DNA of 52,500 nucleotides, taken from the NCBI GenBank assembly GCA_002104895.1, contig MCFG01000168.1:1-52500 (forward strand). Reading direction: 5' to 3'. The notes under the pieces were generated by a model. The model was not told where the DNA came from, made no database searches, and saw only the letters and a program-made list of their open reading frames with translations. This document shows, one piece after another, positions 3,585-52,048 of the stretch. The DNA comes from Anaeromyces robustus. Lineage: Eukaryota; Neocallimastigomycota; Neocallimastigomycetes; Neocallimastigales; Neocallimastigaceae. Position 1 is the first letter of the stretch. Each line of letters starts with the position of its first letter. Both the position numbers and the translations under genes were made by a program.

Positions 3585-4106
3585 TTTTTTTAAAAAACCT
3601 TGAATTGAAAACAAAGCCTTACTAACTTTATTTTTCATTTTACTAATAACGAATTTTAAATCTAGAGATTTGTGAAAGGGAACACCAAGGTAAGTATAAC
3701 AATCTGTTTTAGGGATTGGGATTCCTGTTAAATAAAAGGTAGGGTCTTCTCTAAGAATATATTCCGAATTTTCATGTCTAACAGCAAATGTGGCACATTT
3801 ATTGATTCCAAAAGTCATCTCATTGTCCTTAGCCCATTTACTAACTGAGCGAAGAAGTTTATTCATATGAGATCTACTAGGGGCACAAAGAACAATATCA
3901 TCAGCAAATAATCCTCCACAGCAATATTCAGTATCTATTTTCACACCATTGTGCAGGCAATCGTTGAAGATGTCGTTGATAAACAAATTAAAAAGTATAG
4001 GAGATAAGGGACATCCTTGTCGAACTCCTTTAAGTATACTGAAGGAATCGGAAAATTGTCCATTAATTTTAACACAAGCTTTGGAAGACAGATATAGGTT
4101 CTCCAA
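3582..4106 (-). CDS. LINE polyprotein part 2: reverse transcriptase motifs B to E
   Basis: This frame continues part 1 after the slip at 4105-4109. It carries motif B GVRQGCPLSPILFNLFIND, the catalytic FADDIVL box (motif C), motif D (GINKCATF region) and the motif E-like YTYLGVP. The apparent start codon is only the first Met in this frame and not a real initiation site. The frame ends at TGA (3582-3584) just after an A7 run (minus strand); removing one A would run it straight into the zinc-knuckle frame. As read, the polymerase domain is split from both neighbours. Confidence 0.88.
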   Translation of the reverse strand: MENLYLSSKACVKINGQFSDSFSILKGVRQGCPLSPILFNLFINDIFNDCLHNGVKIDTEYCCGGLFADDIVLCAPSRSHMNKLLRSVSKWAKDNEMTFGINKCATFAVRHENSEYILREDPTFYLTGIPIPKTDCYTYLGVPFHKSLDLKFVISKMKNKVSKALFSIQGFLKK

Positions 4107-19517: not shown

Positions 19518-20504
19518 CTAATATTTAATTAATTTTAAATATTCTTTTCCATATTCTAAATTATTATTTCTTATCTTTTCAACAATAGTACCATGTTCAT
19601 ATTCAGGATCATAAACATATTCTAATCTGGTATTACTAACTCTTAATATTTCTTTTATTAAATTTTTAGATGAAGATTCAGGAATAACATTATCTAAACC
19701 AGTATAATAAAATGTAAATTTTTCAACATTAAAATGATTAGAAATAGTAGTAGTATTTTCATAATTGCGTATAATTTCAATTGGTGATATTTCTTTATGA
19801 TTATAATAAGTCATCATTAAACCTTGAAGAGTTTCTTGTTCTCCTGGATCTGTAGTAATTGTAGCATCACTTGTACTACTTGAACCTTGTAAAGTATAAG
19901 CAAGAAATTCTTGATCAAAAATATATGGACCATTCATTAAAAGAACATTTTTAAGGGATGGTAAACTTTCTAAAGGTATACCATTATTGGATATTTGAAG
20001 AGCAGATTTAACAATAGTTAAAGCAGTAAGATGAGCTCCAGAGGAATGAGCAGAAATAGAAATTTGATTAGGATCCCCACCATATTTAGAAATATTTTTA
20101 AAGGTCCATTGAATAGCATTATAAATATCATCGACCATATCTTCAATGGTACCATTTGGAAATAAAATATAATTTGGTAAAACAGCAATATAACCAGATT
20201 CTTCAAGAAGAGAACCAATATTAGTATAACTTATTTTACTATTCGTAATCCAATAACCTCCATAAATATGAATTACTACTGGTTTTTTATTTTCTATATC
20301 ATTTTTATTATAATAAACATCTAATAATCTTTCACCATTAAAAGGAATATCTCTTTCAATATTTTCTACTTTATTATAATTTATTGTATCCCATTCTAAA
20401 GCAGCAGCAGCTTTATTATTAGCACGAATAACTAAGGCATTAGCACCAGTATTGAAAATGAAAAATAAGGTGAAAAATAAAATGGAAAAAAGTGATGTCT
20501 TCAT
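19518..20504 (-). CDS. Secreted alpha/beta-hydrolase, esterase of the BD-FAE / carboxylesterase type (328 aa)
   Basis: A single exon. Residues 1-23 are a signal peptide (MKTSLFSILFFTLFFIFNTG). An alpha/beta-hydrolase fold follows: oxyanion-hole motif VVIHIYGGYW (79-85), nucleophile elbow SAHSSGAH with Ser154, acid in YYTGLDNVIP (Asp271) and catalytic His in YEHGT (His304), in the correct order and spacing. The layout resembles BD-FAE / isoprenylcysteine methylesterase-like and kynurenine formamidase-like hydrolases. Secretion and the host lifestyle suggest a plant-ester substrate, but this is inference. Two deviations: the usual HGG is YGG (Tyr81), and the elbow is A-x-S-x-G rather than G-x-S-x-G. 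Size (about 300 aa mature) fits the family. It has no dockerin, so it is not cellulosome-bound by that route. The stop is TAG. Confidence 0.87.
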   Translation of the reverse strand: MKTSLFSILFFTLFFIFNTGANALVIRANNKAAAALEWDTINYNKVENIERDIPFNGERLLDVYYNKNDIENKKPVVIHIYGGYWITNSKISYTNIGSLLEESGYIAVLPNYILFPNGTIEDMVDDIYNAIQWTFKNISKYGGDPNQISISAHSSGAHLTALTIVKSALQISNNGIPLESLPSLKNVLLMNGPYIFDQEFLAYTLQGSSSTSDATITTDPGEQETLQGLMMTYYNHKEISPIEIIRNYENTTTISNHFNVEKFTFYYTGLDNVIPESSSKNLIKEILRVSNTRLEYVYDPEYEHGTIVEKIRNNNLEYGKEYLKLIKY

Positions 20505-30023: not shown

Positions 30024-31735
30024 TTACCATTCAACATCATCAACAATAAAAGTAGTAATAGAATTAGCTTTTAATTCAGCATTGAAACCTTTACCATAGG
30101 GAACAAGTGATGGAAGTTCAGCCCAATGTTCACCATTATTAATAGAACCACTAGTTCTAATAACTTTAACATTATAACCAACACTTGTAAAAGTGGAAAG
30201 GTTAAAATCAACAATTTTATTAGTACCAGCTGGATTAGTTGCTACAATAACTAATTTTTTACCTTGACTATCATAGGCAGCAACAGAATTATTATAACAT
30301 CCAATAATAGTATAACCTGGACGAATGTATCTTGAGAATTGACCAAAACCATAATATTTTTGAGAAAGAATAATTTTATCATTATCATGATCAGCGACAG
30401 CAACCCCCCAATAACCACCATTAAGATTAATCATACCTGAATCTCTATTACCATTATAACCAGTTTTACTAATATGATTAGGTTATTATTTTCAGCAAGA
30501 AGTCTTAATTCATCACGTTTACTTCCACCATAAGTATGGGTATCAATTCTAGTAATAATATTTTTAGCTTCATTACTAAGTTTTTGGAATGAAGTAATTT
30601 GAGTATCAATACTAGTTTCATCTGTACCACTAATTTGCATATCTCTTAAACCTCTTTGATCAATAGCTTTTTTAAGTTCAACAATAATTTTGGATTCAGA
30701 ATTACCTTGATCAAAGTGACAACCTTCTTGTTTTTTACTATTAGCTCCCCAATAATTAGTGAAGGGTTCATTAACAGGGGTAATACTTTGGAAACCAACA
30801 CCCCAACTTGTTTTGAAATGTTCAGCAACATCAGCAAGATATTTAGCAAAAGCAGGGTAAGCATCACTTTTAAGATTATCCTTATTAGCATCAAAATTAC
30901 CTGTGGAACAACCAGAATTCGTCATAAAGTATGGTGGAGAATTAGAGAAAGCTTCTACAATAATTTCATCTCTATTTTTAGCAACAGATTTTAATAAAAC
31001 ATTTCTTTGATTAGCATCACTATTCCAATTATAATCCCAAGTATATGATCTACCATCATATCTTGGATTAATAGCATAACCTGGCATATTTGAATCTGTT
31101 CTAGTAATATGATGATGAGTTGGATCATCACCACCACCAATATTATAACGAATAACGGTAAGACCTAAACCATTGACTTTATCATAAAAGAGAGTAGCAG
31201 CTTTTTCAGCTAAAGAATCTGAATAACCAAGACGATTAGCCCACCAACAGAAACTTGTACCAAAACCTTCAAATCTACGATTATTAAAGTTAGAAGCGTA
31301 AATTTGTTTAACATTAGTACTAATATCAGGTTTTGGATGTTGAGCAGGTCTTTGTGGTACTTGAGTTGGTTGAACAGCTGGTTGAGTTATAGCTGGTTGA
31401 GTTACTGCTGGTTGAGTGGTAGGATTTTGAGTTTTTTGAATACCACACCATTGTCCATTTTCAACACCCCATTGACCATCACTATCTGACATTTCGACTG
31501 CTGTAGTTGATTTACAACATGGGTAACCAAGTTTTGCTGACCAACAATTCGAATTTTGATTTTCAATTATACCACACCATTCACCATTTTCAATACTCCA
31601 CTTACCATCATTATCTGTATAAAAAACTTGTGCAGAATATTCACAACATGGAAAACCAAGACGTGTTGCCCAACAATCAGCTGAAGCTTTTGTAGCAAGT
31701 GCTATTGAAATTAAAAGTGCAAATCCTGTTTTCAT
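30024..31735 (-). pseudogene. Dockerin-bearing GH30 glycoside hydrolase, frameshifted near its nucleophile (about 570 aa)
   Basis: Signal peptide 1-19, two fungal dockerins (about 20-56, 63-99; pattern CW..RLG.PCC...DGKW..ENG.WCG), a Pro/Thr/Gln linker (100-140), then a GH30 barrel: FEGFGTSFCWWANRLG, LGLTVIRYNIGGGDDP, FSNSPPYFMTNSG and acid/base ITPVNEP (Glu323). It best resembles endo-beta-1,6-galactanase-type GH30 (subfamily 5), so arabinogalactan side chains are the likely substrate. Dockerins tether such enzymes to the gut-fungal cellulosome. The frame from 31735 runs out at 30431. The correct one (beta domain, ending FIVDDVEW at 30024) starts near 30480, so one base is missing. Just after the break the expected nucleophile motif SE(T/Y)G reads SKTG (Lys codon 30465-30467). 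Either a dead gene or a locus with an error; the base at the nucleophile deserves a check. Confidence 0.88.
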
Positions 31736-35926: not shown

Positions 35927-36287
35927 CCATAGTTATTTATTTATTAAAAAATCGATTTAATGGTTTTTTATTATCATTATTATCATTTTATATTTAAATA
36001 AAAAAAAAAAATTTAAAAATAAAATAGAATTAAAAAAAAAAAAAAAAAAAAAGATTTCTCTATAAATAAAATTTAAATTAAAAATTTTCTTTAAAAATTT
36101 ATATTAAAAATTATCTTTAAAAATTATATTAAAAATTTTTTTGTTTAACTAAAAATTTTAATTTATATTATTAAAATTATATTTTATATAATTAAATTTA
36201 TATTTTATATAATTAAAATTATATTTATAATACTTTAATAAAACATTCTATATGAATTAATATTTATATATTATACATTTATAGATA

Positions 36288-36833
36288 ATGAGTTCATCTT
36301 CAAAAAGTAACGAATATGAAGTCGTAGATAAAATTAAAATTGATTCTTTTGAAGATGTTAATTCCAGTGATAGTGATGTGGAATCAGAATCTACTTCTGA
36401 AAAAATGGATCTTGATTCGAATTCTGAAAAAAAGAGTTTAAATTCGGATAATTCCGAAAATAATAGTGATACTGGTACTAGTGAAAGTAATATTTACGAA
36501 AATAATAGTGATACTAGTAAAAATGATATTTACGAAAATAATAGTGATACTGGTACTGATGAAAGTAATATTTACGAAAATAAAGTAAATAATAATATTA
36601 ATAGTGATAATGTTGATAATAATGAGGAAAATGAGAGTGTTAATGAAAGTATGGATATTGATGATAATAAGAATAATGACTATATACATACAAAAGATAA
36701 TGAAGACAGTGATAGTGAGGATGATAGTAAAAATTTATCGGATAATTCTGATATTGAAGAAGAAGAAGAAGAAGATTCCTTACAACCATCAACTATATAT
36801 TTAATTATATCTTGTGATGAATTTTGTTTTTAA
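36288..36833 (+). CDS. RNF213-like segment 1: acidic, disordered N-terminus
   Basis: 181 codons from ATG 36288, rich in Ser, Asp, Glu and Asn, with an internal repeat (ENNSDTGTSESNIYENNSD... three related units, 36460-36580) and an E6 run. The last residues (YLIISCDEFCF) look like a beta strand that continues as KKNLIDIVFE in the next frame if one T of the run before 36831 is removed, so the TAA at 36831-36833 is probably not the natural end. No signal peptide: a cytosolic protein. Confidence 0.75.
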   Translation: MSSSSKSNEYEVVDKIKIDSFEDVNSSDSDVESESTSEKMDLDSNSEKKSLNSDNSENNSDTGTSESNIYENNSDTSKNDIYENNSDTGTDESNIYENKVNNNINSDNVDNNEENESVNESMDIDDNKNNDYIHTKDNEDSDSEDDSKNLSDNSDIEEEEEEDSLQPSTIYLIISCDEFCF

Positions 36834-39390
36834 AAAGAATTTAATTGATATTGTTTTTGAAACAAGTGAAGATAATGAAGATAATGAAATAATGAAAAAA
36901 GAATTAATTGAAATTAAAGTTCAAAATGAAATTAAATTAAATGTTAATGAAATTGATAATTCATTTAAAGGCAAAAATATATTTTTATTTAAAGTGAAAT
37001 TAAATTTATATAATGTTGAAGTACAATTTAAAATAAAATTAAATTATTTCAATGAAAATTGCATAACTAAAGATTCTTATACTATTCAGAAATATCAACA
37101 GTTATTTATATTCATGGAAACTTATGAATATAAAAATTGGAATTTTAAAAGAAAGGAAATTAATGATTTAAATGATAGATGTAAAATTTCTTATTTTCAA
37201 AAATTTGAAATCTATAAAAGTTATTTAATTCAAAATAATATGACTGATTTAATATCAATTTTATTGGAGGATTCCATAAAAACTATTCTTAAGCCCAAAA
37301 CTTTAAATTTTGAATATATCTTGGTTTATTTGATGAATTTAATAAATAATCAAACCAATTATTCTGAACTTCCTTACGCGAAAAAAGAAATATTTAAATT
37401 AATTATATTAAATATTGAAAGAAAGAAAAAAGTTAATATCAAAAATTATAATAATAATGAAGCCTATACTAAAATAATTAATATCATTGAAAATTTTAAA
37501 ATCAAATCGGATGAAGACTTTTTTTTACCATTACAATATTTTCTTTTAATTTTTTATCATTTAAATGATCAAGAAAAATTTAAATATATTTTTCAAAGAA
37601 TACCACAGAAGAAAGAAGTTATAAAATATATTCAAAAACATAAAAAAATTTTTTCTAAACTTCAAGCTTTTAATTTACAAATCATTTTTGAAAATACTAA
37701 TATTAATAAAGATTTTAATTTTAATGATATTTTAAATCTTGCTTCGGATTACAATGAATATATAAAATTCTTTTGTTTAAATGGTGATTATATTTTAGCC
37801 GAAAAACCAAAAATAAAATTTAGTGAATATCCTAAACCAGATGAAAATACAGAAATTGATTTATTAGTTCAATATATTGAAATATTGATGGAAATGTCTT
37901 TAGATAAAAAGGATTTAAATTATTTGAAAAATCAATTTTCCTATTTAATTGATAAATTAAAAATGAAAGATTATTATAAATTAAAGGCTTTAAAAGAAAT
38001 TCATAATAAATACAATAAAAATATCATGGTAAATCATATATTTAGTGAATTAGATGAAGTATTACATTGTACAGGAAAATATTTTATTGAAAATAATCGA
38101 TTAAATAATTTAGAAATTATTACTTTTATTCAAATGGATGCCTTAAAATATTATAAATGTTACGAAAATAATTATGAATTTGCTTATTTAATTAAATATA
38201 TCGATCTAGATAAAGTAGATGAAAAATTTTGTAATACCTTTAATAGACATAAATATGATTATGAAAAATTGTTTAAAAATCATTATGCCTTTTTCTTAGA
38301 TTCCATTACCCAAAATGCTACAAAGTTTAGTCATTTACCAATTCTATATCATATTTTTAATATTTATAATAAACCCTTATCGGTTAAACGAATTATAGAT
38401 CAATTAGTTGAAACCTTGATTAAAAATAATTTAAATAAAGAAAATAAGGATATTATAGAATTAACTCAAATGATTAGTCCTTTATTTAAATTAATTTCTG
38501 ATAATAATAATCATGGGTTAAATGATTTAATTCGTGGTATAAAAAAGAAATTTTCTGAAAAGGAAGTCAATAAAATATTTATTATTATTTTAAATAATTT
38601 TAGTAATCAATTAAATCATGCCTTTATTGAGAAACTCATTAAAAATATAAATAATTTAACCAATGATGAATTTATCTTGTATTTAAATCAATTAACGAAT
38701 AAAAAAATGCAAGCTCATTTTCTACAAAAAATATCCAATAGATTTGTTTCAGAAAATGAAATTTTTAATCAAGAATTATCAGAAAATGTAAAATTATTGT
38801 TTGAATTAATACCTATGGGGTATTTTAAATATTATAATAAAAGTAAGAAAATTAAAAAAAATAAAAGAAATAATAAAAACAATAAGAAATATAAATATGA
38901 AAAAAATGGTAGTAAAAAAAAGGATATAGCTGAAAATGAAAATAAAGATGGTAAAGATGATAGAGATGAAAGAGATGAAAGAGATGATAAAAAGGATAAA
39001 AAGGATAAAAATGATAAAAATAATAAAAATGAAAGAGATGATAAAGATGATAAAGATAATAATGATGAAAATGAAATTAGAAATAAAGGAAAAGAAAAAG
39101 AAGAAGAAGAAGAAGAAGAAGAAGAAGAGAGTGAATATGAAAGTGAGGATGAAAATATTTTTAAAAATGTTAAATATATTATGAATACAGTGGAAGTTAT
39201 GAGTAATATAATTAAAAAATTAACTAATTTTGATTTTTCTATGGAATTAACAAAAATAATATATCATTTAAATAAAGATAATAATGTAAAAAATAGAAAT
39301 AATTTTAAAAGTAGACTCTATCTTATTTCTTTAGGTAAAAGAAATTATTCAAATAATTTATATAATGTAGTTATTAGAAAAGTAAATTAA
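36805..39390 (+). CDS. RNF213-like segment 2: N-terminal stalk region with charged insert
   Basis: This frame opens after a stop at 36802; a GTG or ATG near 36814 is not a convincing start, so it is read as the continuation of segment 1. After a beta-rich piece (LFKVKLNLYNVEVQFKIKLN) it is helical, resembling the long alpha-helical stalk of RNF213. A low-complexity insert (38830-39145) alternates Lys/Asn, then Asp/Arg/Lys, then an E run; as DNA it is a mix of AAT, GAT and GAA/AAA repeats. It ends at an in-frame TAA (39388-39390); the same frame continues directly after it. Confidence 0.75.
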   Translation, partial: LYLVMNFVFKKNLIDIVFETSEDNEDNEIMKKELIEIKVQNEIKLNVNEIDNSFKGKNIFLFKVKLNLYNVEVQFKIKLNYFNENCITKDSYTIQKYQQLFIFMETYEYKNWNFKRKEINDLNDRCKISYFQKFEIYKSYLIQNNMTDLISILLEDSIKTILKPKTLNFEYILVYLMNLINNQTNYSELPYAKKEIFKLIILNIERKKKVNIKNYNNNEAYTKIINIIENFKIKSDEDFFLPLQYFLLIFYHLNDQEKFKYIFQRIPQKKEVIKYIQKHKKIFSKLQAFNLQIIFENTNINKDFNFNDILNLASDYNEYIKFFCLNGDYILAEKPKIKFSEYPKPDENTEIDLLVQYIEILMEMSLDKKDLNYLKNQFSYLIDKLKMKDYYKLKALKEIHNKYNKNIMVNHIFSELDEVLHCTGKYFIENNRLNNLEIITFIQMDALKYYKCYENNYEFAYLIKYIDLDKVDEKFCNTFNRHKYDYEKLFKNHYAFFLDSITQNATKFSHLPILYHIFNIYNKPLSVKRIIDQLVETLIKNNLNKENKDIIELTQMISPLFKLISDNNNHGLNDLIRGIKKKFSEKEVNKIFIIILNNFSNQLNHAFIEKLIKNINNLTNDEFILYLNQLTNKKMQAHFLQKISNRFVSENEIFNQELSENVKLLFELIPMGYFKYYNKSKKIKKNKRNNKNNKKYKYEKNGSKKKDIAENENKDGKDDRDERDERDDKKDKKDKNDKNNKNERDDKDDKDNNDENEIRNKGKEKEEEEEEEEEESEYESEDENIFKNVKYIMNTVEVMSNIIKKLTNFDFSMELTKIIYHLNKDNNVKNRNNFKSRLYLISLGKRNYSNNLYNVVIRKVN

Positions 39391-39603
39391 TGTATGAATA
39401 TATTCGATACAATTGAAGAAATCATAAATATCTATTCATCTTATTTTCCAAGAGAAAAACAACAAATTACTCAATATTATAAAGATATTAGGACAACTAT
39501 TTTAAATAATCCTATTAATACTTTCCCAAAAAAGAGTGAAATAAATAATTTTGAAGAATATTACGAAGAAGCACATGAAATTACAGAATTAAAATTTTCA
39601 TAA
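39391..39603 (+). CDS. RNF213-like segment 3: short piece between two in-frame TAA codons
   Basis: About 70 codons (MNIFDTIEEIINIYSSYF...) in the same frame as segments 2 and 4, bounded by TAA 39388-39390 and TAA 39601-39603. It is too short to be a gene by itself; helical, no motif of its own. Confidence 0.65.
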   Translation, partial: CMNIFDTIEEIINIYSSYFPREKQQITQYYKDIRTTILNNPINTFPKKSEINNFEEYYEEAHEITELKFS

Positions 39604-41635
39604 TTTTTTGTTGAAATATTTCAAAAAATGGTATTAAATGAAAATAATGATATTGATTTTATTAATGAGGATGAAAATAATATTAATTATGATTCAATAG
39701 TTATAAATAAAACAAAAAATGAATTCTTTAATTTAAAATATTTATTTGATTTGAATACTGAGGCAAAAGTGGATTTAATATTTTTAGAAGAAATTTTATC
39801 AAAAATTAATAATGAAGAAATAGAAAAGGAATTGGATATATTAATGGATATATTTATTGTTGATAAAAGTTTAAATAATAATTTGGATTATAAATTAATA
39901 CTTTTAAATGAAAGAAAGAATAATATAAATATATTAAATAAAATTCGTATGTTATTAAATGATTATCCTCTAAAAAGTAATTATTTAGGAAGACAATTAG
40001 CTTTTATTATTAATAATTTAAAAACTAAACCCACATTAGATGTTCTGGTTACAATTGATGAATCTTGTAATAAATTAAAATTAAAAATTTTAAATAAAGA
40101 ACATTTAAATGTTCAAGCAATTATTGAAAAAATGTATAGTAAACCGGAATTAATCAATTTCATAAAAAATAAAACTATTAATGATATCCATCAAATGGGA
40201 GAATTTATTGATGATTCCGAAGATGTTTATATCACGGTATCAGATATTGATCAATTAGAAACCTGTATGAATTTTATTAAAAATTTAGAAAATAAATGTA
40301 AACAAAATTCTTTAAATGAAAATGAATTTTTAGATGAATTTATACATCTTTCAAATCATGATGATTTTAAAGATATTGGTATAAAATTTGAAAATTCATC
40401 AGGAAAATATCATGATTTTTATGAATTATATACAAATCATTTAAATCCTAATGAATTAAATAAGGAACATATTAGAAAAATTTATAATAATAGTATTTTC
40501 AATTTATTCTTTTCCTATCCTGAATATCATTGTACAGTTATCTATAGAAATAATGAAAAATTTTTAGAAAAAGATTTTGATGAAATGTTAGATTTAAGAG
40601 ATATTGCTTTATTAAGGAAAAAAGATCAACGTGAAAAAGATTACTTTGAAATTTGTGATGGTTTTGCTAAAATAATTAATGATATTCAAGAAATATTAAG
40701 AATTTTAAATATCATATCTTTAAAAGGTTATTTCAAAGAAATAAATTATATGATTAATATTAAAAAGGGGGAATCTCTTGGTTATCAAGTTAACAATAAT
40801 AATATAGAAAATGAAAGGAAAAACCTAAAAGAAATTATTATGGAATTAAATAATATTAAAAATATTCAAGATGAAGAAGTTAAACATATCTATTTATCCA
40901 ATTCTATTACATCTTTAATTTATGGTAGACAATTTAGTTATTTATATCGTGCTATTTTTTCCTATTATAATAAACATAAATATAATAATGATAATAATGA
41001 TAATAATAATAATAATAAAGGAATATTTGATTATTCAAATATTTTGAATAATATTATTAAATATATTACTAATAATTATCATATTATTAATCAATATAAA
41101 TATACGCCAAAGGAAAAATTTGTACAAAGTATTTCATTAAATCAAATGTATAATAATGTTAGTAACTATTTAAATTATTTATTTGAAATAAATCATATAG
41201 ATTTAAAAAAAATATATAAAAATGCCTTTTTATTAGATGATGAAAAAAGAGGAATCTATAGTCATTTTTGTTCTGTTGATGATATTGAAAAAAATGCAGT
41301 TTATTGTGCATTAAGTTTAACTGGTAATTTTCCTTTAGCTCATACTGTATTATATTGTAATAATGATACTTCTGAAGAAGAAATAACATCATTTATCTAT
41401 AAAAGTGTTAAATGTGAATATCATGTTTTATTCATTTTAATAAAACCTGAAAATTTAAAAATTGAAAAAAAGAATCTTTTAATTGAATTACTTAAAGAAC
41501 ATTATTCACAAGAACCTAATAATATGAAATCATGTTTACTTTTTATTTATAATAAAGAAAATAAAACTAAAGAAATTATTACTGAAATTGAAAAATTACC
41601 TTATCATAAATATTTTGATTTTAAAATAGAAGATA

Positions 41636-41666
<31 letters not shown>

Positions 41667-42384
41667 CAATAAGTATAAGAATAATAATAGTAAGAATAAT
41701 AGTAAGAATAATATTATGAAAATATTTCCAAATGTTCAAATCTATTCAAGTGAATTTTCAGGATTGGGTAAGTCCACTTTAATTAAAAATGATTTCAATA
41801 TAGAAAATAAAAATGGTAAATATAAATATATCTATTTCCCATTGGGAGGAAATATTGATAAGGATGAAATTATTAATCGATTATTAAAATTAACAGATAA
41901 AAATATAGCTCTTCATTTAGTTTTATATGATTCTAACCATATAGAATTAATTAGAGAATTTTTATTTTCATTTTTAATTTTAAGATATTATTCTAAAAAT
42001 GAAAATATTTTCTTTTATGGAAAAGAAATGAAAATAAAAGTTGAAATTCCAAATAGTTTTATTGATTTTAAAAGATTATTTCCTATATTCAATTTCTTTA
42101 ATAATATAGAATTAACTTCTACTAATTTACCTCCTTTAAATGTTCCTAATTATATATTATCAAATACACAAATTGTATGTAATTATTTAAAAAATATTAA
42201 TTTAATTAATCATCAAGATATTTATTTTGAAGGTATCACTCAAAATAATGAATTACAACACCAGAGTATTATAGCTTTACCTTTAAGTTCCAATGAATGT
42301 AATAGACTCATTCAACAATATTTAAACATTGAAAATCCTAATTATTATCAAATTGAGGCCTATATTAATATTATTGCTGAATAA
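39604..42384 (+). CDS. RNF213-like segment 4: stalk end and degenerate AAA module
   Basis: Same frame as segment 3. Around 41280-41600 it has LTGNFPLAHTVLYCNNDTSEEE and a strand pattern like RNF213's early AAA modules. A P-loop-like FSGLGKSTLIKN starts near 41755, after a poly-Asn insert (41635-41715). There is no clear Walker B, so it is probably non-catalytic, as described for the early AAA modules of RNF213. The end EAYINIIAE is followed by TAA (42382) then LNLLSNS. In the family this point is typically a Gln (pattern LAxQLxxF), so CAA to TAA is the simplest explanation. Confidence 0.75.
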
Positions 42385-43095
42385 TTAAATCTTTTATCAA
42401 ATTCAATCTATTTAAATGCTCCAATACTAAATGAAATTAGTCAATATAAAGGATTTTTAAATAATATTAGATATTTCTTTGTTAATTCATTAACTCAAAT
42501 AACAAAATATTTTATAACCTCTTCTTATGATAATTTATTGAAAGGTCAAAATGTAACTCATAATCAACAAAAAGGGAAAATAAATTTAGAAAAAGCTAAT
42601 GAAGAAGCCATTGAACTTTTAACAAAAAAGGAAGAATTTTCAATAAAAAAAAATAGACCTAGTATGATTTTAATTAATGAAGATGGACAATCCATTTCAG
42701 AAATTGTAACTTGTAAAGAAAATACTGAAGAATATAACCTTTTAAAATCTATTTATAATTTAGATTCATTAGATGATAGTAGGCCAATTATTGATTATAA
42801 AAAGTTAAAACCAGAAGGATTTTTAATAGAAATTAAAAACATTCTAAATCTTTTCAATCCTATAGATGAAAAAGATACTTCTTGTCCAAAAGAAAGATAT
42901 GGTGTACCATTAATACCTTTAAATAAAATTGTACAATCCTATGTATTTACAGCAGATAATTTTATTAAACTGATTCTTATTTCATTAAGACTTAGAACTA
43001 ACATTCCTGTCATATTAATGGGTGAAACTGGATGTGGAAAGACTTCATTAATTAGAATTATAGCAAAATTAAAAATATTTCTTTATATACTTTAA
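42385..43095 (+). CDS. RNF213-like segment 5: entry to AAA3 with Walker A
   Basis: Same frame as segment 4. It holds CPKERYGVPLIPLNKIV and then the AAA3 Walker A ILMGETGCGKTSLIRII (43021-43059), close to the IMGETGCGKT motif of RNF213 AAA3. The true frame leaves at the A5 run 43071-43075, where one A appears to be missing; the remaining few codons to 43095 are out of frame. Confidence 0.8.
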   Translation, partial: LNLLSNSIYLNAPILNEISQYKGFLNNIRYFFVNSLTQITKYFITSSYDNLLKGQNVTHNQQKGKINLEKANEEAIELLTKKEEFSIKKNRPSMILINEDGQSISEIVTCKENTEEYNLLKSIYNLDSLDDSRPIIDYKKLKPEGFLIEIKNILNLFNPIDEKDTSCPKERYGVPLIPLNKIVQSYVFTADNFIKLILISLRLRTNIPVILMGETGCGKTSLIRIIAKLKIFLYIL

Positions 43096-43172
43096 ATATT
43101 CATGCCGGCATTGAAGATAATGATATTATTGAATTTTTAAAAGAAAAAAATATATTTGTAAATAAATCATTA

Positions 43173-43212
<40 letters not shown>

Positions 43213-45680
43213 TAAATAAAGATAAAGGTAAAGATAAAGGTAAAAGTAAAGAAAAAGGTAAAGAAAAAGAAATGGATATGGAAAATGCTAATAAAACAAG
43301 TGATATATGGATATTTTTAGATGAAATTAATACTTGTAATTCATTAGGATTAATAACTGAAATTATGTTAAAACATTCATGTAAAGGAGAAAAACTTAAA
43401 GAAAATGTAAAATTTATTGCAGCATGTAATCCATATAGATTAGATACTAGAAAGAATGAAATTATTGGATTATATGATGAATCCAAACATTTAGTAAGAA
43501 AATTAGTATATAGTGTTAATCCTTTACCACATTCACTTCTTAATTTTGTTTTTGATTTTGGTACACCTGGAGAGGAAGATATTAAAAGGTATATTTCTAA
43601 TATGGTTTTCCAAATTCTTCAAAATTTAATTCCTAATCAAAAAATATTAGTAAAAATACAAAAAATTGCAGAAAAATCTATTTTCGAAGCTCAAGACTTT
43701 ATTAAAAATAATTTTGAAATATCTGCTGTAAGTTTAAGAGAAATAAGAAGATGGGGAATTTTATTTGAATGGTTTATGAATTTATTAAGAATACCTTATA
43801 TTGAAAAAAAATTTGGATTTAAATCAGAAGAAAAAATATATATTTATTCTTTAAATTTAAGTATTTATCTTTGTTATTTCATAAGAATATTTGATAAAAG
43901 TATAAGAAAAAGATTTTTAAAATTAATGAAAGAAACTTTTGGAGGTCATTTTAATTTTGAAAGTTTTCCCAAAAAAATTCAGAATTTAATTGCAGATGAA
44001 GTAAATTTAGATAAAGGTATTGCAAAAAATAGAGCATTATTAGAAAATTTATTTGCTATTTTTGTTTGTTTAAATACAAAAATTCCTTTATTTATTATTG
44101 GAAAACCAGGATGTAGTAAATCCTTAAGTGCTCAAATGATTTTTAAATCTATGAATGGAAAAGATTCCTCAAGTGATTTCTTTAAAGCTTTCCCAAAAGT
44201 TTATACTAAATCTTATCAAGGATCTTTAACTAGTAATTCTAAAGGTGTTTTAAAGATATTTAAAAAAGCAAGAGAATCACTTAAAGATAAAAGACTTTCC
44301 AATGAAATCGTTTCAGCTATTTATTTTGATGAAATGGGTCTTGCTGAAATATCAAAAAATAACCCCTTGAAAGTAATTCATTCTCAATTAGAATATGATG
44401 AAAATGAAAAAAAGATATCCTTTATTGGTATTTCTAATTGGCCATTAGATGCCTCTAAAATGAATAGAGGTATTCATTTATCCATTCCTGAACCCGATAA
44501 AGATGATTTGATAGAAACCGCTTTAGCTATTGCTGAATCCTATGATTCAAGATTAAATCAAGACTATAAAGAATATTTTGAATATTTAGCACTTACCTAT
44601 AATGAATATAAAAATGAATTAAAAAATAATTCATCTAATTTTGAATCTACATCTCGATTAAATGTTAAAAAAATCACTAAAAAGAATATAAAGGAATTTC
44701 ATGGAACAAGAGATTTCTATCATTTAATTAAAACAGCCTCAAAATTATTTATTGAAAATAATTATACAAAGGAAAGTTATGAAATAGAAAAAATTTTAAA
44801 TGAAAGTATTGAAAGAAACTTTGGAGGATTAGATAATTCCATTAAAATATTTAAACAAATATTTAAAAAATATGTCCCAAGTATTAATGATGTTAAGGAA
44901 TATAATGTAATGAAATGTATTACTAATAATATAGAAGATTCCAAAAGTCGTTATTTATTAATTGAAACCAAAAGTTCTATTAGTCATTTTTTAATTACTC
45001 TTATTTTAGAAAATTTAGGCAAAAATTATACATTTTATTATGGTAGTAGTTTTGAGGACGATATATCACAAGGTTATTATAGTGCTAAAGTATTAAATAA
45101 AATTCAAATAACCATGAAAAATAATAATGTTATGATTTTAAAGAATTTAACAAGTATGTATCCTTCATTATATGATTTATTTAATCAAAATTTCCGTAAA
45201 ATTGGTGAAAGTAATTATGCTAGAATTGCATTAGGAAATTCAAATACTCAAAATTATTATGTAAATGATGATTTAAGATGTGTTATTCTATTAGATAGAA
45301 ATGAAATTGAAAAACAAGATCCTCCATTTATCAATAGATTTGAAAAACATATTATAACCTTTAAAAATTTATTAAATAAGAATGAAATTGATATTTCAAA
45401 AAATATTAATTTACTAATTAATGAATTAGTTAAATCACATAATAAAAAAATATTAAAAATTGATTTAAAATATGAATTAATAAATTGTGATATTGAAGAA
45501 ATTCAAGGAATCATATATCAATTATCTGAAAATATTAAAATGGGAGAAGATAATAAGATTAAAGTAAATTATAATAATGAAGTTAAAATTGAAAATGAAA
45601 ATAACAGAAGCAATAACAACAACAACAACAATAACAATAACAACAACAATAATACTAATAATAATAATAACAATTTTTAA
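43071..45680 (+). CDS. RNF213-like segment 6: AAA3 Walker B and complete AAA4
   Basis: The frame is open from 43071. It begins KNISLYTLNIHAGIEDNDI, then a 14-Asn run and a KGKDKGK tract, then Walker B IWIFLDEINTC and sensor-like FIAACNPYRLD (AAA3). AAA4 follows: GKPGCSKSLSAQM, Walker B AIYFDEMGLAE, FIGISNWPLDASKMNRGI. The RNF213-specific LLDRNEIEKQDPPFINRFEKH is near 45290-45350. Both P-loops and both DE boxes are intact, so ATPase activity would be expected from this part. It ends in an Asn-rich run with a stop at 45678-45680, caused by a one-base shift in the T5 run. Confidence 0.83.
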
Positions 45681-45685
45681 ATAAA

Positions 45686-45880
<195 letters not shown>

Positions 45881-45901
45881 TACAATAACAATAACAGTAA
45901 T

Positions 45902-48900
45902 ATGAGTAATTTAAATATTAATGAAATAAATTCAGATACAGTTACATTTTATCAAAAATATACATTAGAAAAAATTGTACCTACTTTTTCACAAGATATA
46001 ATTTTCTTTTCAAAAAATTCTGGTTTTATTCTAAATCATAATAAGGAATTTCAAAATATTTTAAATATTTATCTTAAAGAAGAACATCAACATAAAAATT
46101 TGAAATCTTATTTAGAAAAAATTGATACTAATAAACATGTTATTTATACTTTTTCAAATATATTAGATTCTATTTTTGGTTATAGAAATGAAATAAAACA
46201 AATTAAAAATGATAACTATGGGCCATTTTCTAAAAATAAAACAAGAAATATTTTTATTAATCAATATAATTCTGAACGTGCTATTGATGAAATTATTAAT
46301 GATTATTATACCAATGAAAATTATAATTTATGTGTTTTACATTTTGATATAAATGATTCAATTCATTTAAATCATATTAATTATTTAATTGAAAATATTG
46401 AAAATTCCATAAAAGAAAATGGAATATTTAAACAAAAGGTTATATTATTTATTATTCATTTAACAAGAAAAATGTTATATGAAGATAATGATATTTACAA
46501 TAATAATATGGAAATTCATAATGAATATTTAATATCCCATTTAACTGAATGGAAACAATTTTTCATAGATAATTTGAATGGTATGGATATAGAATTTAAA
46601 GAAATATTTGAATCCTCAAATATTGAATTATTTAATAATAAGAAATTAATCAATTTAGATGATGAATTTAAAAAGGATTTATTCCATGCATTTACATTAA
46701 TTTCATATAAATTTAAAATTAATTTTTCTTCTATTAAAAATGAAGAATATATAGAAAAAGTGTGTAAATATGTCAATAATAATAAAAAATTGAAAAAGAT
46801 CATACAAAATTTAATTTATAAAAAAATTGAAAATATCAAAGAGAACTTTATCCTAAAAATATTCACAGATTACAATTTTGAAGATAATGATGTCGATTTT
46901 ATTTCAATTATTATAAAATATATGAAATTAATTTATAATGACGCATTAATAAGTACTTTAATTCAATTTGAAAAATTTAATATTTTATCCACTAAAATGT
47001 TGAGTGGAAGAATAATGAAAAATGAATTTTTTGATCAAATATATGATAGTTATATTAATAAATTTGATTCTACCATTGAAAAATATTCTGTATTATCTCA
47101 TGTTGAAAAAATTGATATATTATTAGGTATTTCATATCCATGTATAATTTCGGTATTTAAAGAAATTAATAATTATACAAATACTTTAATTGAAAATTAT
47201 CTTGAAAATGATTATGCCTATAGACAAGAACAATTTAATGATATATCGGAATATTTTAGAGAAAAAAATAATCTGGAAAATAATTTAAAGACTGAATTTG
47301 AAAGAAAATACTTTAAAAAATTATTCCAAAATAATGGAAATGAAGACGTTTTAGAAAATATTGATATATCTGATAAATATGGATTAATAAAAATATTTTT
47401 CAAGGATTATATTATTTATTACTTATCAAAATCAAATTATCAATTTTTAAATAAAAATATTTTAGAATTTTTCAATGTTTTATATATACTATTTATTACA
47501 AGAAATGACAATGAAAATGAAAACGAAAATGAAAATGAAAACGAAAATGAAAATGAAAACGAAAATGAAAATGACAATGAAAATGAAAATGACAATGATA
47601 ATGAGGATAAAGAGAAAAAATTAACATTTGAAAATATGATAAAATTTGTTTTATTTATTGAATCTTATAAGGATTATCTATATCCATTATGTTCATTTAT
47701 TTGTTCATTAGATTCATATATTGATGAATTTTTAAATACCTTCATATTACAAATTTCACAAAAAATGTTTAAAATGTCCAATAGAGATATTTCATATGTT
47801 AATGATATTTTCTTTAATTTATATGAATCTGTGGTATATTGTATTCTTAACATTAATGGAGATCAAAAATTTGATAAAATTTCTAATGAAAATTTTGAAA
47901 TTCTATTAAAAGAAATAGAAATTTTTTCACATCATTTAATGAAAGTAAATATAGAATTACGTTTAACATTAAAGCAAATTTTATATTTACTTGATTTTAT
48001 TCAAGTAAAGGAATCCTTTAGTAAAAATGGTATTCCATTGAAAAAGAATTTACAAATTTATCTTGATATTTTAAGAAAAGAAAATATTATTTATTTGATA
48101 CCTGAATATTATGAAATAAATAAAAAGGATCATTATAATGATTATCTTGAAGATAATAATGAAGATTATGAACCAATAGAAAAAGAGTTTTCATTTTTAG
48201 AAAAAAAGTTATCCAAACAAAAGAATTATTCAAATTTAATTATAAAATTATTAAATAATAAAATGCGAATTTCTAAACAAGAGAAATATAGAGTTAAATT
48301 ATTAAAAATTTTATGTTCTAATAATTTATTTATATTAAAATCAAAGATTATTTTTGAAACAATTCTCAATAAATTTAATATAACTCCTATCAATATAAAA
48401 GATGAAAAAAGTATGAATGAAAATGATGATCATGAAAAAGGTGATAATGATGAGGATGATTATGATAATGATGATGATTATGATAGTGATGATTATGATG
48501 ATGATGATGATTATGATGATGATTATGATAGTGATGATTATGATAGTGATGATTATGATGATGATGATGATTATGATGATGATTATGATGATGATGGTAC
48601 TGGTGTGATATTTTTAACAGAATTGGAAAGAGAAAAAAATAATCTTATTATTAAATTTTTAAATAATAATAATAATAGATGTTTAGAAGAAGTTTTATTA
48701 TCATTATTTGAAGGAAAGATCTCAAATTATTTTGAATTAAACAATTCAAAAGAAAATTTAATTTTAAATCAATCTTTTAAAATATTAGAAAAATGTGTTA
48801 TATATGTTGAAAAAGAACAGTGTAAAATTACAAATAAAAATAGGTTATCTATTTTATTTTGTATATCCTATATAAAATTATATTGTTATCATGTTTGTAA

Positions 48901-51571
48901 AGTAATAAATAATGAATCCAATAATAATATGGATATACTATATGAATTATTTGAATTTTTAAATAAATCCAATGAATTTAGAAAGGTACTAAAAATATAT
49001 ATTCTCAAAGTATTAAATTTAATTATAATTGGTAATTACAAAGATTTTCTTAATTATATAAAAGATAAACAAATATTTATTAATGATTTTGATTTTAGTG
49101 AAAAAGTACCATGTTTATTAGATTATTTATTTATACAGAATGATACAATAGAAAATTATAAGACTTTAAGAAAAGAATATATGATTAGTAAAATGGAAAA
49201 TTTTAAATCTTCAAAAGAGATTGTAAAATTATTAAAAGATAGAAATAATATATTTAATTTCTTTGATTTAATTATTAATGAAGACATATCAAACCTAATA
49301 ACAAATTTTGATGTAGATTTCTATACTAGTTTATCCAATTTTATTTCAAATATTTTAAAAAAATTAAATATACCTATTTTATCCAAAAATATATTTTCAA
49401 TTTACACAAATTTCGATTCTATTGTAAATGAAATAGTATTCATTCAAAATCTTAATGTAAATACCTATGAAATATTATTATATTCCTATAAATTTACATA
49501 TATATGTTCATTTTCAAAAGAAAACAGTTTTTATTCGAATATATTATCATTTAATGTTCTCAATTATTTAAAGAATGCATATATACCTGGAGGGGAACCT
49601 AATGATAATTTAATTATAGAATCAGGAGATGAGATACAAAAATATATTCAAAGTGGTGGTAATGAAGCTATATATATGTGTAGTTGTAATAGTTGGTATC
49701 GAGTAGGAGATTGTGGATTACCCATGGAAGAACATCTTTGCGGAAATTGTGGGAAATTATTAGGTGGTAAAAATCATAGATTAGTTGATAGGCCTGGACA
49801 TGTTAGAATTTATATAAATCAATTACAAAAGAATACCTCTCAAGCCTTAGAAAGAAATATTAATCATGTCATTGGTAGAAGTAAAATGATAGAAGAATTA
49901 ATGACAGAAGTAGAACAAAATAGAAATCTTCAAATAAAAGGATTTAAAAAAGTTAAAAGAAAATTTTTTACTAGTAAAGATAAAAAAGTAAGAAATATAA
50001 GTAATATAACTTATAGAGTTTTAAGTTTTATTTTCTTTTCCTGTATATTTTTTGATGAAAAACTTGGATATTTAGAAAGTAATTTATTAGAAAATTTCTA
50101 TTATTCTGATGCTAATGAAACGAATAAATCCATATTAAATATTTTAATTGATACTTGGAAGACACTTAGTGAAGAATTATCCAAAAGGGAAATTGAAAAT
50201 ATTCAATGTTTCCTAAATATGATTCTACCTGAAATTACTAATATTATATCTGAAAATAAATATGGAATGACAACACCAGGTGAAAGAAATGATTTTGAAG
50301 ATTTATGTAATGTAATAATTGAAAGAGCTATTTTAGATTATAAACATTATTATGAAATTTATTTAGAAAATAATAAAAAAATCTTAGAAATTGAAGATGA
50401 AACCATAAAATCCATTTTACAAGAAACTTCTAATATAAATCACTTATCCTCAAAAATATATCCTTTACTTACCTATTTTAATGCCGCCGATTATCCAAGT
50501 ACTGAAAAATTTTATGAAGAATTTATTACAATGCCAAATCTTATGGAACAATATCCAGTAATTACAAATTATTTGAATACTTGTCAAAATGAGGAAACGA
50601 TTAAATTTTTAGAAAATTTCCATTTAATCAATCCATTTGTGACCTATATGTTAGATAAATATAAAAATAAAATTTCAAGAAAGGAAGCTAAAGAAAGGAA
50701 AATTAAAGATGAATTAGAAAATGAAAATGATAAAAAAATGAAAATTTTATTTAATAATTTCAAGAAAGGATGGAAAAATATCTATAAAAAATTATCTAAT
50801 TATGATTGTCATGGACAATTACCTCCTAAAAATATAACCGAAGAGGATTGTTTAGCCTATGGTTTAAATGATAATTTAGAAGATGATTATGGAAAATATA
50901 TAGCTACGGCCTATAAAGATTTTATTACTTATCAAAATGAATTTTTAAAACCTTTAATTAAAAATAATATATCCTATGATTATTTATATCCATATTCCAG
51001 TCAAATAAAAAAGGCAATTATCGTTCAAAGAGCAAGTAAGAATGAAATTGTTTCCTTGGAGATTCAAAATGATATATCTGATTCCTTTAAAGATTTAATC
51101 ACAACATTTTCATATAGAAATTTTGTTTCCGATCATGGTAAGATTAGTTTTTTAAATTATAAAGAAAATAAATATGATTTTTATTCCATTGAAGTGGAAC
51201 TTTCAAAAATTTTATTACCTGAAAAGAGATTATTTTTAAATGAACAACATCAAGATTTTATAACGTATGCCTTTGAAGGATTTAATAAGAATGAAAATGT
51301 GATTTTATATTTTAAAGAAAAAATTAGAACCCTTCATTATTTATCTAATGAAGAAAAAGCTAATATATCCAATAAGATAGAAAGAATAGATTATAAATTA
51401 ATATTATTTAATTTACAATCATTATTTTTATATTTTAATAATAGAAGAAATATTACTGGGGAAGAAATATTAAATGATGAAATAAATCAATTACCTTCAA
51501 AGATAATTAAAATAGATGATGATTTTATAAACATTTTTAGAAATCTTCAATTTAATATTAAATTAAATTAA
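45902..51571 (+). CDS. RNF213-like segment 7: C-terminal E3 module with RZ finger (1,889 codons open)
   Basis: The longest open part; the same frame is already open from about 45680 through the Asn tract. It is a helical shell region with two simple inserts: Glu-Asn repeats (47508-47610) and Asp-Tyr repeats (48421-48600). The RZ zinc finger is at 49679-49790: C-S-C ... GDCGLPMEEHLCGNCGKLLGG ... H. Spacing between the last three Cys (9 and 3) matches the family. The position that is His in human RNF213 (H4509, needed for E3 activity) appears to be Ser. It ends at in-frame TAA 51569-51571, after which the frame continues for 158 codons. Confidence 0.83.
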   Translation: MSNLNINEINSDTVTFYQKYTLEKIVPTFSQDIIFFSKNSGFILNHNKEFQNILNIYLKEEHQHKNLKSYLEKIDTNKHVIYTFSNILDSIFGYRNEIKQIKNDNYGPFSKNKTRNIFINQYNSERAIDEIINDYYTNENYNLCVLHFDINDSIHLNHINYLIENIENSIKENGIFKQKVILFIIHLTRKMLYEDNDIYNNNMEIHNEYLISHLTEWKQFFIDNLNGMDIEFKEIFESSNIELFNNKKLINLDDEFKKDLFHAFTLISYKFKINFSSIKNEEYIEKVCKYVNNNKKLKKIIQNLIYKKIENIKENFILKIFTDYNFEDNDVDFISIIIKYMKLIYNDALISTLIQFEKFNILSTKMLSGRIMKNEFFDQIYDSYINKFDSTIEKYSVLSHVEKIDILLGISYPCIISVFKEINNYTNTLIENYLENDYAYRQEQFNDISEYFREKNNLENNLKTEFERKYFKKLFQNNGNEDVLENIDISDKYGLIKIFFKDYIIYYLSKSNYQFLNKNILEFFNVLYILFITRNDNENENENENENENENENENENDNENENDNDNEDKEKKLTFENMIKFVLFIESYKDYLYPLCSFICSLDSYIDEFLNTFILQISQKMFKMSNRDISYVNDIFFNLYESVVYCILNINGDQKFDKISNENFEILLKEIEIFSHHLMKVNIELRLTLKQILYLLDFIQVKESFSKNGIPLKKNLQIYLDILRKENIIYLIPEYYEINKKDHYNDYLEDNNEDYEPIEKEFSFLEKKLSKQKNYSNLIIKLLNNKMRISKQEKYRVKLLKILCSNNLFILKSKIIFETILNKFNITPINIKDEKSMNENDDHEKGDNDEDDYDNDDDYDSDDYDDDDDYDDDYDSDDYDSDDYDDDDDYDDDYDDDGTGVIFLTELEREKNNLIIKFLNNNNNRCLEEVLLSLFEGKISNYFELNNSKENLILNQSFKILEKCVIYVEKEQCKITNKNRLSILFCISYIKLYCYHVCKVINNESNNNMDILYELFEFLNKSNEFRKVLKIYILKVLNLIIIGNYKDFLNYIKDKQIFINDFDFSEKVPCLLDYLFIQNDTIENYKTLRKEYMISKMENFKSSKEIVKLLKDRNNIFNFFDLIINEDISNLITNFDVDFYTSLSNFISNILKKLNIPILSKNIFSIYTNFDSIVNEIVFIQNLNVNTYEILLYSYKFTYICSFSKENSFYSNILSFNVLNYLKNAYIPGGEPNDNLIIESGDEIQKYIQSGGNEAIYMCSCNSWYRVGDCGLPMEEHLCGNCGKLLGGKNHRLVDRPGHVRIYINQLQKNTSQALERNINHVIGRSKMIEELMTEVEQNRNLQIKGFKKVKRKFFTSKDKKVRNISNITYRVLSFIFFSCIFFDEKLGYLESNLLENFYYSDANETNKSILNILIDTWKTLSEELSKREIENIQCFLNMILPEITNIISENKYGMTTPGERNDFEDLCNVIIERAILDYKHYYEIYLENNKKILEIEDETIKSILQETSNINHLSSKIYPLLTYFNAADYPSTEKFYEEFITMPNLMEQYPVITNYLNTCQNEETIKFLENFHLINPFVTYMLDKYKNKISRKEAKERKIKDELENENDKKMKILFNNFKKGWKNIYKKLSNYDCHGQLPPKNITEEDCLAYGLNDNLEDDYGKYIATAYKDFITYQNEFLKPLIKNNISYDYLYPYSSQIKKAIIVQRASKNEIVSLEIQNDISDSFKDLITTFSYRNFVSDHGKISFLNYKENKYDFYSIEVELSKILLPEKRLFLNEQHQDFITYAFEGFNKNENVILYFKEKIRTLHYLSNEEKANISNKIERIDYKLILFNLQSLFLYFNNRRNITGEEILNDEINQLPSKIIKIDDDFINIFRNLQFNIKLN
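48421..48597 (+). repeat. GAT/TAT coding repeat (Asp-Tyr rich)
   Basis: GAT-dominated minisatellite with GATTATGATAGTGATGAT-type sub-units; a block of about 60 bp is repeated with small changes. It encodes Asp with spaced Tyr and Ser, and stays in frame. Confidence 0.85.
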
Positions 51572-52048
51572 TTAATTGATTGTTATGAATATGTAGAATT
51601 TTTAAATTATGATAAAATTATAAAAAATGTTTCTGTGAAAGCTAAAAATAAATTAGAAATTAAACAAATAGAAGAATTAAAACAACATTTCAGTCAAGAA
51701 AATTTATTAATTAGTAAAAAGGATTTAGGACAAGCTGTTAGAAAATTTATATCCAGATTTTTAATTAGTGAACGATTTAAAAATTATGAATGGAATATTT
51801 TTGTTTTATTAAAATTTAAAATGGAATTATGGAATGAAACTATTATTAAAGAAGAAAATGAAGAAAAATTTGAAAAAGAAATTGAACAATTAGAAAATAT
51901 AAATATTACCATTAGTCAATCCATTCATTTTTATGAAGAATTAGGCGGAGAAAGAGCGGAAAATAAACGTACGATTAAAAATAAAAATAATCCTAGCCAT
52001 AGAAGAAAGATTAAAAATACTAAAGTTAAAAAGGGATTAGATTATTAA
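51572..52048 (+). CDS. RNF213-like segment 8: C-terminal tail
   Basis: Same frame as segment 7, directly after the TAA at 51569-51571. It reads DCYEYVEFLNYDKIIKNV, then helical ELKQHFSQ and VRKFISRFLISER, and ends in a basic tail (NPSHRRKIKNTKVKKGLDY) before TAA 52046-52048, followed by AT-rich DNA. It is most likely the natural C-terminus. Confidence 0.75.
   Translation, partial: LIDCYEYVEFLNYDKIIKNVSVKAKNKLEIKQIEELKQHFSQENLLISKKDLGQAVRKFISRFLISERFKNYEWNIFVLLKFKMELWNETIIKEENEEKFEKEIEQLENINITISQSIHFYEELGGERAENKRTIKNKNNPSHRRKIKNTKVKKGLDY

What the first reader, a model, noticed from the sequence alone, without database searches (positions are those of the whole stretch)
36288..52048. Full-length RNF213-type giant protein gene in a gut fungus
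Seen: about 5,253 codons without introns, with AAA3 and AAA4 Walker motifs, the PPFINRFEKH element and an RZ finger near codon 4460. Known: human RNF213 is 5,207 aa with the same order and acts as an AAA+-controlled E3 ligase in lipid, hypoxia and antimicrobial biology. Inference: such an ancient-looking, complete homologue in an anaerobic fungus living among dense bacteria could belong to a cell-autonomous defence system, or be an animal- or protist-derived transfer. Its presence here is unusual for fungi.
Basis: partly seen in the sequence, partly recalled or inferred. Interest (0 to 1): 0.85.

Follow-up and report, generated by a model that had tools for sequence, protein, structure and literature searches.

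The report
Broken fungal RNF213-like giant gene
A gut fungus carries a small family of giant genes related to the animal immune protein RNF213, without its RING finger; the copy in this window is interrupted and probably no longer works, but a sister copy is one unbroken 5,181-residue frame.

Summary
An RNF213-like giant gene is really there, but it is not one 5,253-codon frame. The window holds eight consecutive plus-strand pieces with four in-frame TAA codons and at least two frame changes. Seven pieces are colinear with an unbroken 5,181-codon sister gene elsewhere in the genome. Four RNF213-like genes were found: one open, three interrupted, plus a small relic. Similarity is specific: the AAA3-AAA4 stretch matches only RNF213 in the PDB (2.8e-80 for the window), and the four-copy profile finds no dynein or midasin at E up to 10. 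The only RZ fingers found in the genome are in these four genes. The Walker pattern at AAA3/AAA4 agrees with RNF213. Differences: no copy has a recognisable RING finger, the histidine zinc ligand of RZ is replaced, and no N-terminal carbohydrate-binding domain was detected in the open copy. Outside AAA3-AAA4 and RZ no sequence match was found. Best reading: a RING-less, ATP-gated RZ-type ubiquitin ligase family, the window copy being a recent pseudogene. Antimicrobial function is plausible but untested. Vertical descent versus transfer cannot be decided with the collections at hand. Awkwardly, the one unbroken copy lacks the RZ catalytic histidine.

The parts
36285..36833 (+). low-complexity Asn/Ser/Glu-rich leader frame (ATG at 36288); belongs uncertainly to the gene
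   Evidence: stop-free piece; no Pfam match; no match to the sister copy
36805..39390 (+). N-terminal arm piece; its residues 45-675 align with C169 residues 330-999; ends in in-frame TAA
   Evidence: blastp 36.5%, E=1.3e-97
39391..42384 (+). linker, AAA1 and AAA2 pieces (C169 1080-1148 and 1166-2039), interrupted by TAA at 39601 and ended by TAA at 42382; domain names by position relative to RNF213, not by match
41758..41778 (+). AAA2-position P-loop SGLGKST, with no Walker B glutamate seen downstream
   Evidence: present in 4 of 4 copies (SGLGKST in three, CGLGKST in C17)
42385..43095 (+). AAA3 piece with Walker A GETGCGKT (43021-43044); the frame changes within 43056-43092
43056..45680 (+). 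AAA3-AAA4 piece: Walker B3 43314-43334, Walker A4 44100-44123, Walker B4 44322-44348, PPFINRFEKH 45321-45350
   Evidence: phmmer to PDB RNF213 2.8e-80 over residues 82-789; motif places
45570..45905 (+). low-complexity stretch with a long poly-asparagine (AAT) tract; the frame changes somewhere inside
   Evidence: end and start of the matched parts; letters
45671..51571 (+). stretch that would hold AAA5-AAA6, hinge and E3 module (1,966 codons), without a RING; ends in in-frame TAA
49658..49786 (+). RZ zinc finger (PF20173): Cys codons 49679 and 49685, nucleophile Cys 49712, Cys 49739 and 49748, His 49775
   Evidence: 44.1 bits over cut-off; 37.5 bits; residues; profile aligned with RNF213 RZ
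51572..52048 (+). C-terminal piece (C169 5020-5150) and final stop
   Evidence: blastp 51%, E=7e-34

Best explanation
The window holds a recently disabled member of a four-gene family of RING-less RNF213-like AAA-RZ ubiquitin ligases in an anaerobic gut fungus. A working member would act like RNF213: ATP binding to AAA3/AAA4 switches the E3 module on, the C-terminal domain receives an E2~ubiquitin, and the RZ cysteine takes the ubiquitin by transthiolation and passes it to a substrate, with no RING involved. Shown: relatedness of AAA3-AAA4 and RZ, the motif pattern, lack of a recognisable RING, copy number found, the breaks. Inferred: folding of the rest as an RNF213 E3, enzymatic activity, substrate. 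The most likely role is cell-autonomous surveillance of intracellular microbes or membranes; this is the weakest step.
For: AAA3-AAA4 of the window matches RNF213 only, nine of nine rows at E up to 0.01, best 2.8e-80. The four-copy profile matches nine RNF213 sequences at 1.5e-91 to 4.4e-85; the next hit is a non-AAA protein at E=0.49. RZ matches Pfam, and the RZ-CTD profile finds only RNF213, four of four rows, in RZ (best 4.7e-4); nucleophile and terminal His are kept in the window copy. A P-loop without Walker B Glu at the AAA2 position in 4 of 4, as PMC7311170 reports for RNF213 AAA2 (passages). The literature has the RING dispensable for most activities (PMC7311170, PMC11549300; passages). 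dN below dS between copies in AAA3-AAA4 (0.20-0.31 against 0.69-1.43) and in E3-CTD (0.35-0.44 against 0.84-1.31), rough counts. Breaks look recent: the window copy is the least diverged of the four in AAA3-AAA4 (65-71% identity). Assembly control: frames of 4,398, 4,577 and 4,764 codons at three dynein matches, 5,717 at midasin and 5,181 at C169 are open.
Against: Profiles of linker-AAA1-AAA2 and of the AAA5-to-E3-back stretch did not find RNF213, and outside RZ the RZ-CTD profile did not either. Single-sequence AlphaFold models were unusable (pLDDT 34.7 and 35.1), so the E3 fold is untested. The only unbroken copy, C169, lacks the RZ terminal histidine that serves as general base in RNF213. 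The histidine zinc ligand is absent in all four copies. C412 has frame changes only and no nonsense codon, so assembly error is possible there. The assembly control is mixed: the other 10 of 13 dynein matches lie in frames of 100-3,683 codons, one with a TAA inside the match, and one of four FAT-domain matches has four TAA inside; introns may explain these, but I did not check.
Confidence: 0.72

Rival explanations
1. The window copy is an intact, working gene and the breaks are sequencing or assembly errors.
For: The frame changes lie by an A-run and in a poly-Asn tract; C412 has four frame changes and no nonsense codon. The protein is otherwise constrained. Some control genes also show stops inside a match, introns not excluded.
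Against: The window copy has four in-frame TAA codons, two of them where C169 has glutamine. Five frames above 13 kb in the same assembly are open.
Confidence: 0.2
2. Ordinary dynein- or midasin-type six-AAA protein, with P-loops recognised by chance.
For: Pfam assigns general AAA models; the dynein-like ring is shared by the superfamily.
Against: Profile search of the PDB gives RNF213 and no dynein or midasin at E up to 10. The genome has its own dyneins (13 matches) and midasin at other places. RZ was found only in these four genes.
Confidence: 0.02
3. Gene acquired by an ancient transfer from an animal or protist, then duplicated in the fungus.
For: Open 15.5 kb frame without introns in C169. 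Searches of the held papers for RNF213 with Neocallimastigomycota, with chytrid, and with fungal plus horizontal gene transfer returned none; this is weak.
Against: No positive evidence. Similarity to vertebrate RNF213 was detected only in AAA3-AAA4 and RZ, which speaks against a recent gift from the animal host. No related sequence in IMG/VR or GTDB by the narrow patterns used. Long open frames also occur at this genome's dyneins and midasin.
Confidence: 0.25
4. A housekeeping ubiquitin ligase (lipid droplets, hypoxia, proteostasis) rather than a defence protein.
For: RNF213 has reported lipid-droplet roles in animals (a title seen in the reference list of PMC12075652); constraint between copies.
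Against: A multi-copy family with interrupted members and faster change in the E3 half than in AAA3-AAA4 looks more like a turnover family, though this is weak.
Confidence: 0.35

Closest known systems
RNF213 (mysterin), human 5,207 aa (length as given in the finding); PDB chains 6TAX/7OIK and 8S24/9JWG
   Same: AAA3-AAA4 over about 700-800 residues, catalytic Walker pattern at AAA3 and AAA4, a P-loop without Walker B at the AAA2 position, RZ finger placed after the AAA ring, total length of about 5,200 residues
   Different: no recognisable RING finger in any copy; RZ histidine zinc ligand missing, with an extra cysteine; no carbohydrate-binding domain detected in the open copy; N-arm and E3 scaffold not recognisable by sequence; poly-Asn and acidic tracts inserted; four copies
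ZNFX1
   Same: RZ finger with Cys/His dyad (PMC12075652, passage)
   Different: an RNA helicase (as stated there), not a six-AAA ring; no RZ protein of another kind was found in this genome
Dynein heavy chain and midasin (Rea1/MDN1)
   Same: six-AAA architecture of the superfamily (as in PMC7311170, passages)
   Different: no sequence match of the AAA3-AAA4 profile at E up to 10; no RZ (recalled)

Membership tests
RNF213 | AAA3-AAA4 sequence homology | tested here: met
   window 2.8e-80, C169 3.3e-90, profile 1.5e-91
RNF213 | functional Walker A and B at AAA3 and AAA4 | tested here: met
   GETGCGKT/FLDEINT and GKPGCSKS/YFDEMGLAE in the window, aligned to RNF213 GETGCGKT/DE and GKPGSSKS/DE; in the window copy a frame change falls between Walker A3 and B3
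RNF213 | AAA2 that can bind but not hydrolyse ATP | tested here: inconclusive
   SGLGKST-type P-loop without DE in 4 of 4 copies, but that stretch has no sequence match to RNF213
RNF213 | signature insertions IR3 and IR5 | tested here: inconclusive
   the matched range spans both by the published mouse numbering (PMC7311170, passages; matched range); IR3 region shorter, with LVYxVxxLPxSL kept
RNF213 | RZ finger with nucleophile cysteine | tested here: met
   four of four copies over the Pfam cut-off and with the nucleophile Cys; profile matches RNF213 RZ
RNF213 | full set of RZ zinc ligands and Cys/His dyad | tested here: inconclusive
   C77, C412 and C17 keep the terminal base His, C169 does not; the His zinc ligand is absent in 4 of 4, with a second Cys two residues after the first in three and eight after it in C17
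RNF213 | RING finger in the E3 module | tested here: not met
   one CxxC, that of RZ, in the C-terminal 1,478-2,669 residues of each of 4 copies; whole C169 has two CxxC; no zf-RING in Pfam at E up to 0.01 for the window pieces or 0.1 for C169
RNF213 | N-terminal carbohydrate-binding module | tested here: not met
   no Pfam family at E up to 1 in C169 residues 1-1861 nor at 0.01 in the window pieces; the other two copies were not scanned
RNF213 | E3 back/shell/core and CTD fold | tested here: inconclusive
   no sequence match; models pLDDT about 35
RNF213 | RZ-dependent, ATP-stimulated ubiquitin transfer | not testable with these tools
   needs biochemistry
Dynein/midasin | best sequence match of the AAA core | tested here: not met
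   no dynein or midasin at E up to 10

The most novel reading that the evidence does not exclude
Anaerobic fungi carry a turnover family of RING-less RNF213-type giant ligases, a natural counterpart of the laboratory delta-RING mutant. They use it for cell-autonomous defence against intracellular bacteria or viruses, which would place the AAA-RZ ligase at the base of opisthokonts, with RING and sugar-binding parts added in animals.
Probability: 0.22. Interest if true: 0.8.

Novelty: new variant of a known kind. Interest (0 to 1): 0.52.

Why it matters
RNF213 is studied mainly in vertebrates (my impression, recalled), and why it has both a RING and an RZ finger is open. A fungal relative with the AAA core and RZ but no RING is a natural test of the claim that RZ alone carries the ligase activity. 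It also asks whether this immune ligase predates animals. The window copy itself is a broken gene and useful mainly as evidence of family turnover.

Tried and rejected
Rejected: dynein/midasin origin. Introns as the cause of all breaks: coding homology continues through the stops at 42382 and 51569; for the stops at 39388 and 39601 the flanking homology is weaker and I did not test it further. Reassigned stop codons: the sister copy is open for 5,181 codons under the standard code and the window also has frame changes.

Led nowhere: single-sequence AlphaFold of the RZ-E3 part and of RZ alone (pLDDT 34.7 and 35.1), so no fold search was run. Profiles of the AAA1-AAA2 and AAA5-to-E3-back stretches against the PDB gave no RNF213. 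Relatives in IMG/VR and GTDB: none by two peptide patterns each plus tblastn and none by one degenerate DNA motif; these patterns are narrow, and absence there says little about eukaryotes. No phylogeny was attempted, since no eukaryotic collection was offered.
Full report
What is there. The window is G000:C77:1-52500 of a 70.2 Mb assembly in 769 contigs. A search of the genome with the fungal dockerin family CBM_10 gave 683 first-look candidates, of which 150 were scored and all 150 were over the cut-off. Two lie in a GH30 gene of this window at 30434-31735 (-). Together with a G+C of 9-32% in 2-kb steps this fits an anaerobic gut fungus; the name of the organism is not known to me.

The frame. 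The span 36285-52048 is covered by eight consecutive plus-strand stop-free pieces (15,749 of 15,764 bases; 5,273 codons in all, overlaps counted twice). It is not one frame. In-frame TAA codons stand at 39388, 39601, 42382 and 51569. The frame changes within 43056-43092, after the AAA3 Walker A, and somewhere within the low-complexity stretch 45570-45905, which holds a poly-asparagine tract. A low-complexity leader in another frame precedes 36833. Seven of the eight pieces align in order with a sister gene on C169 (from residue 330 to 5150; the leader does not). For the long piece 45671-51571 one search lists only its first part; the RZ-CTD part is aligned (53% identity to C169). C169 is 5,181 codons with no stop. 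At 42382 and 51569 C169 has glutamine and homology continues on both sides, so these are nonsense codons and not introns.

The family. RZ (PF20173) was found four times in the genome: C77, C169, C412 and C17. The AAA3-AAA4 query finds the same four genes, a short broken relic on C667 (five stops) and a weak match on C763. C763 is midasin, with a 5,717-codon frame. C412 shows four frame changes without nonsense codons in its matched pieces; C17 shows six apparent frame changes and one TAA. As a control on assembly quality, 3 of 13 dynein matches lie in frames of 4,398, 4,577 and 4,764 codons. The other ten lie in frames of 100-3,683 codons, one with a TAA inside the match. Of four FAT-domain matches one has four TAA inside. 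Introns may explain these, which I did not check, so the control is supportive but mixed. Protein identity between copies is 59-71% in AAA3-AAA4 and 44-55% in the E3-CTD part, with dN below dS in all 12 comparisons by a simple count. The window copy is the least diverged in AAA3-AAA4, so its decay looks recent.

Relation to RNF213. The window's AAA3-AAA4 piece matches RNF213 chains only (nine of nine rows at E up to 0.01, best 2.8e-80). C169 gives nine RNF213 rows, best 3.3e-90, and one unrelated row at 0.0062. The four-copy profile gives nine RNF213 rows from 1.5e-91 to 4.4e-85, then two non-AAA proteins at E=0.49 and 0.8; no dynein or midasin appears at E up to 10. The RZ-CTD profile matches four RNF213 rows only, in RZ alone (4.7e-4 to 6.1e-4). 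phmmer with the C169 C-terminal 1,986 residues found nothing at E up to 0.01. The linker-AAA1-AAA2 and AAA5-to-E3-back profiles do not match RNF213; the hits they gave were mostly repeat or acidic-tract matches.

Active-site anatomy. Both catalytic AAA sites have Walker A and B. At the AAA2 position a P-loop without a Walker B glutamate stands in 4 of 4 copies, the pattern reported for RNF213 in PMC7311170 (passages). In RZ the published ligands are Cys4505, His4509, Cys4525 and Cys4528, with nucleophile Cys4516 and base His4537 (human numbering; PMC11549300, passages; the dyad also in PMC12075652, passages). The window copy has cysteines at the positions of 4505, 4516, 4525 and 4528 and histidine at 4537. 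At the His4509 position it has serine, with an extra cysteine two residues after the first. C412 is alike except for the residue at the His4509 position. C17 has a six-residue insertion. C169 has lost the terminal histidine. So the only unbroken frame has an incomplete dyad, and the copies with a complete dyad are interrupted in this assembly. I cannot resolve this here.

No RING. The C-terminal 1,478-2,669 residues of each of the four copies contain one CxxC, that of RZ, and all of C169 contains two. No RING model was hit (at E up to 0.01, at 0.1). RNF213 works without its RING in auto-ubiquitination (PMC7311170, passages) and on two bacteria, while ubiquitylation of the Toxoplasma vacuole was partly impaired (PMC11549300, passages). 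The lack is therefore compatible with activity, but it means the gene should be called RNF213-like and not RNF213. No carbohydrate-binding module was found in C169 residues 1-1861 at E up to 1.

How it most likely works. By analogy with the published RNF213 cycle (ATP binding at AAA3/AAA4 switches on the E3, CTD docks the E2, RZ cysteine accepts ubiquitin; PMC12075652, passages), an open member would be an ATP-gated RZ ligase. The steps up to 'has the parts' are shown for AAA3, AAA4 and RZ. The E3 scaffold, activity and substrate are inferred. Defence is suggested by RNF213's role in vertebrates and by induction of an RNF213 gene in activated immune cells of the sea anemone after poly(I:C) (PMC13319465, one passage). 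Nothing here tests it in a fungus.

Origin. No eukaryotic sequence collection was available. IMG/VR and GTDB gave nothing by narrow patterns. Similarity to vertebrate RNF213 was detected in two regions only, so a recent transfer from the animal host is unlikely. Older transfer and vertical descent both remain open. Held papers: none join RNF213 with Neocallimastigomycota, with chytrid, or with fungal plus horizontal gene transfer, and none join 'RZ-type' with fungi. Fifteen papers hold 'RNF213', 'fungi' and 'homolog'; none of the titles concerns a fungal RNF213. I saw passages of one of these (PMC11573180) and they do not either. Predicted fungal RNF213-like proteins may well exist unremarked in protein databases that I could not search.

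Verdict. The finding is a RING-less variant of a known kind of enzyme, in a group where the held literature shows none. The window copy is most likely a pseudogene.

Noticed in passing
window 3941-6616 (-): Reverse transcriptase plus endonuclease/exonuclease domains, a LINE-like element (RVT_1 2.5e-12, Exo_endo_phos 7.1e-10).
   Followed up: no
window 30434-31735 (-): GH30 glycosidase with two fungal dockerins (CBM_10), a cellulosome-type enzyme.
   Followed up: no
window 19521-20504 (-): Esterase-like alpha/beta hydrolase matching BD-FAE (8.3e-21), feruloyl-esterase type (expansion of the name recalled).
   Followed up: no
L008 (C169:34289-34387, -): The only unbroken RNF213-like copy has lost the RZ terminal histidine and the following block, while the three interrupted copies keep it.
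   Followed up: partly
L023 (C667:372419-372691, -): Degraded relic of the AAA3 Walker A region with five stops, pointing to further lost copies.
   Followed up: partly
L010 4304-5854 (C169:52304-53854): Class C seven-transmembrane receptor-like gene (7tm_3, 3.3e-8) near the unbroken copy.
   Followed up: no
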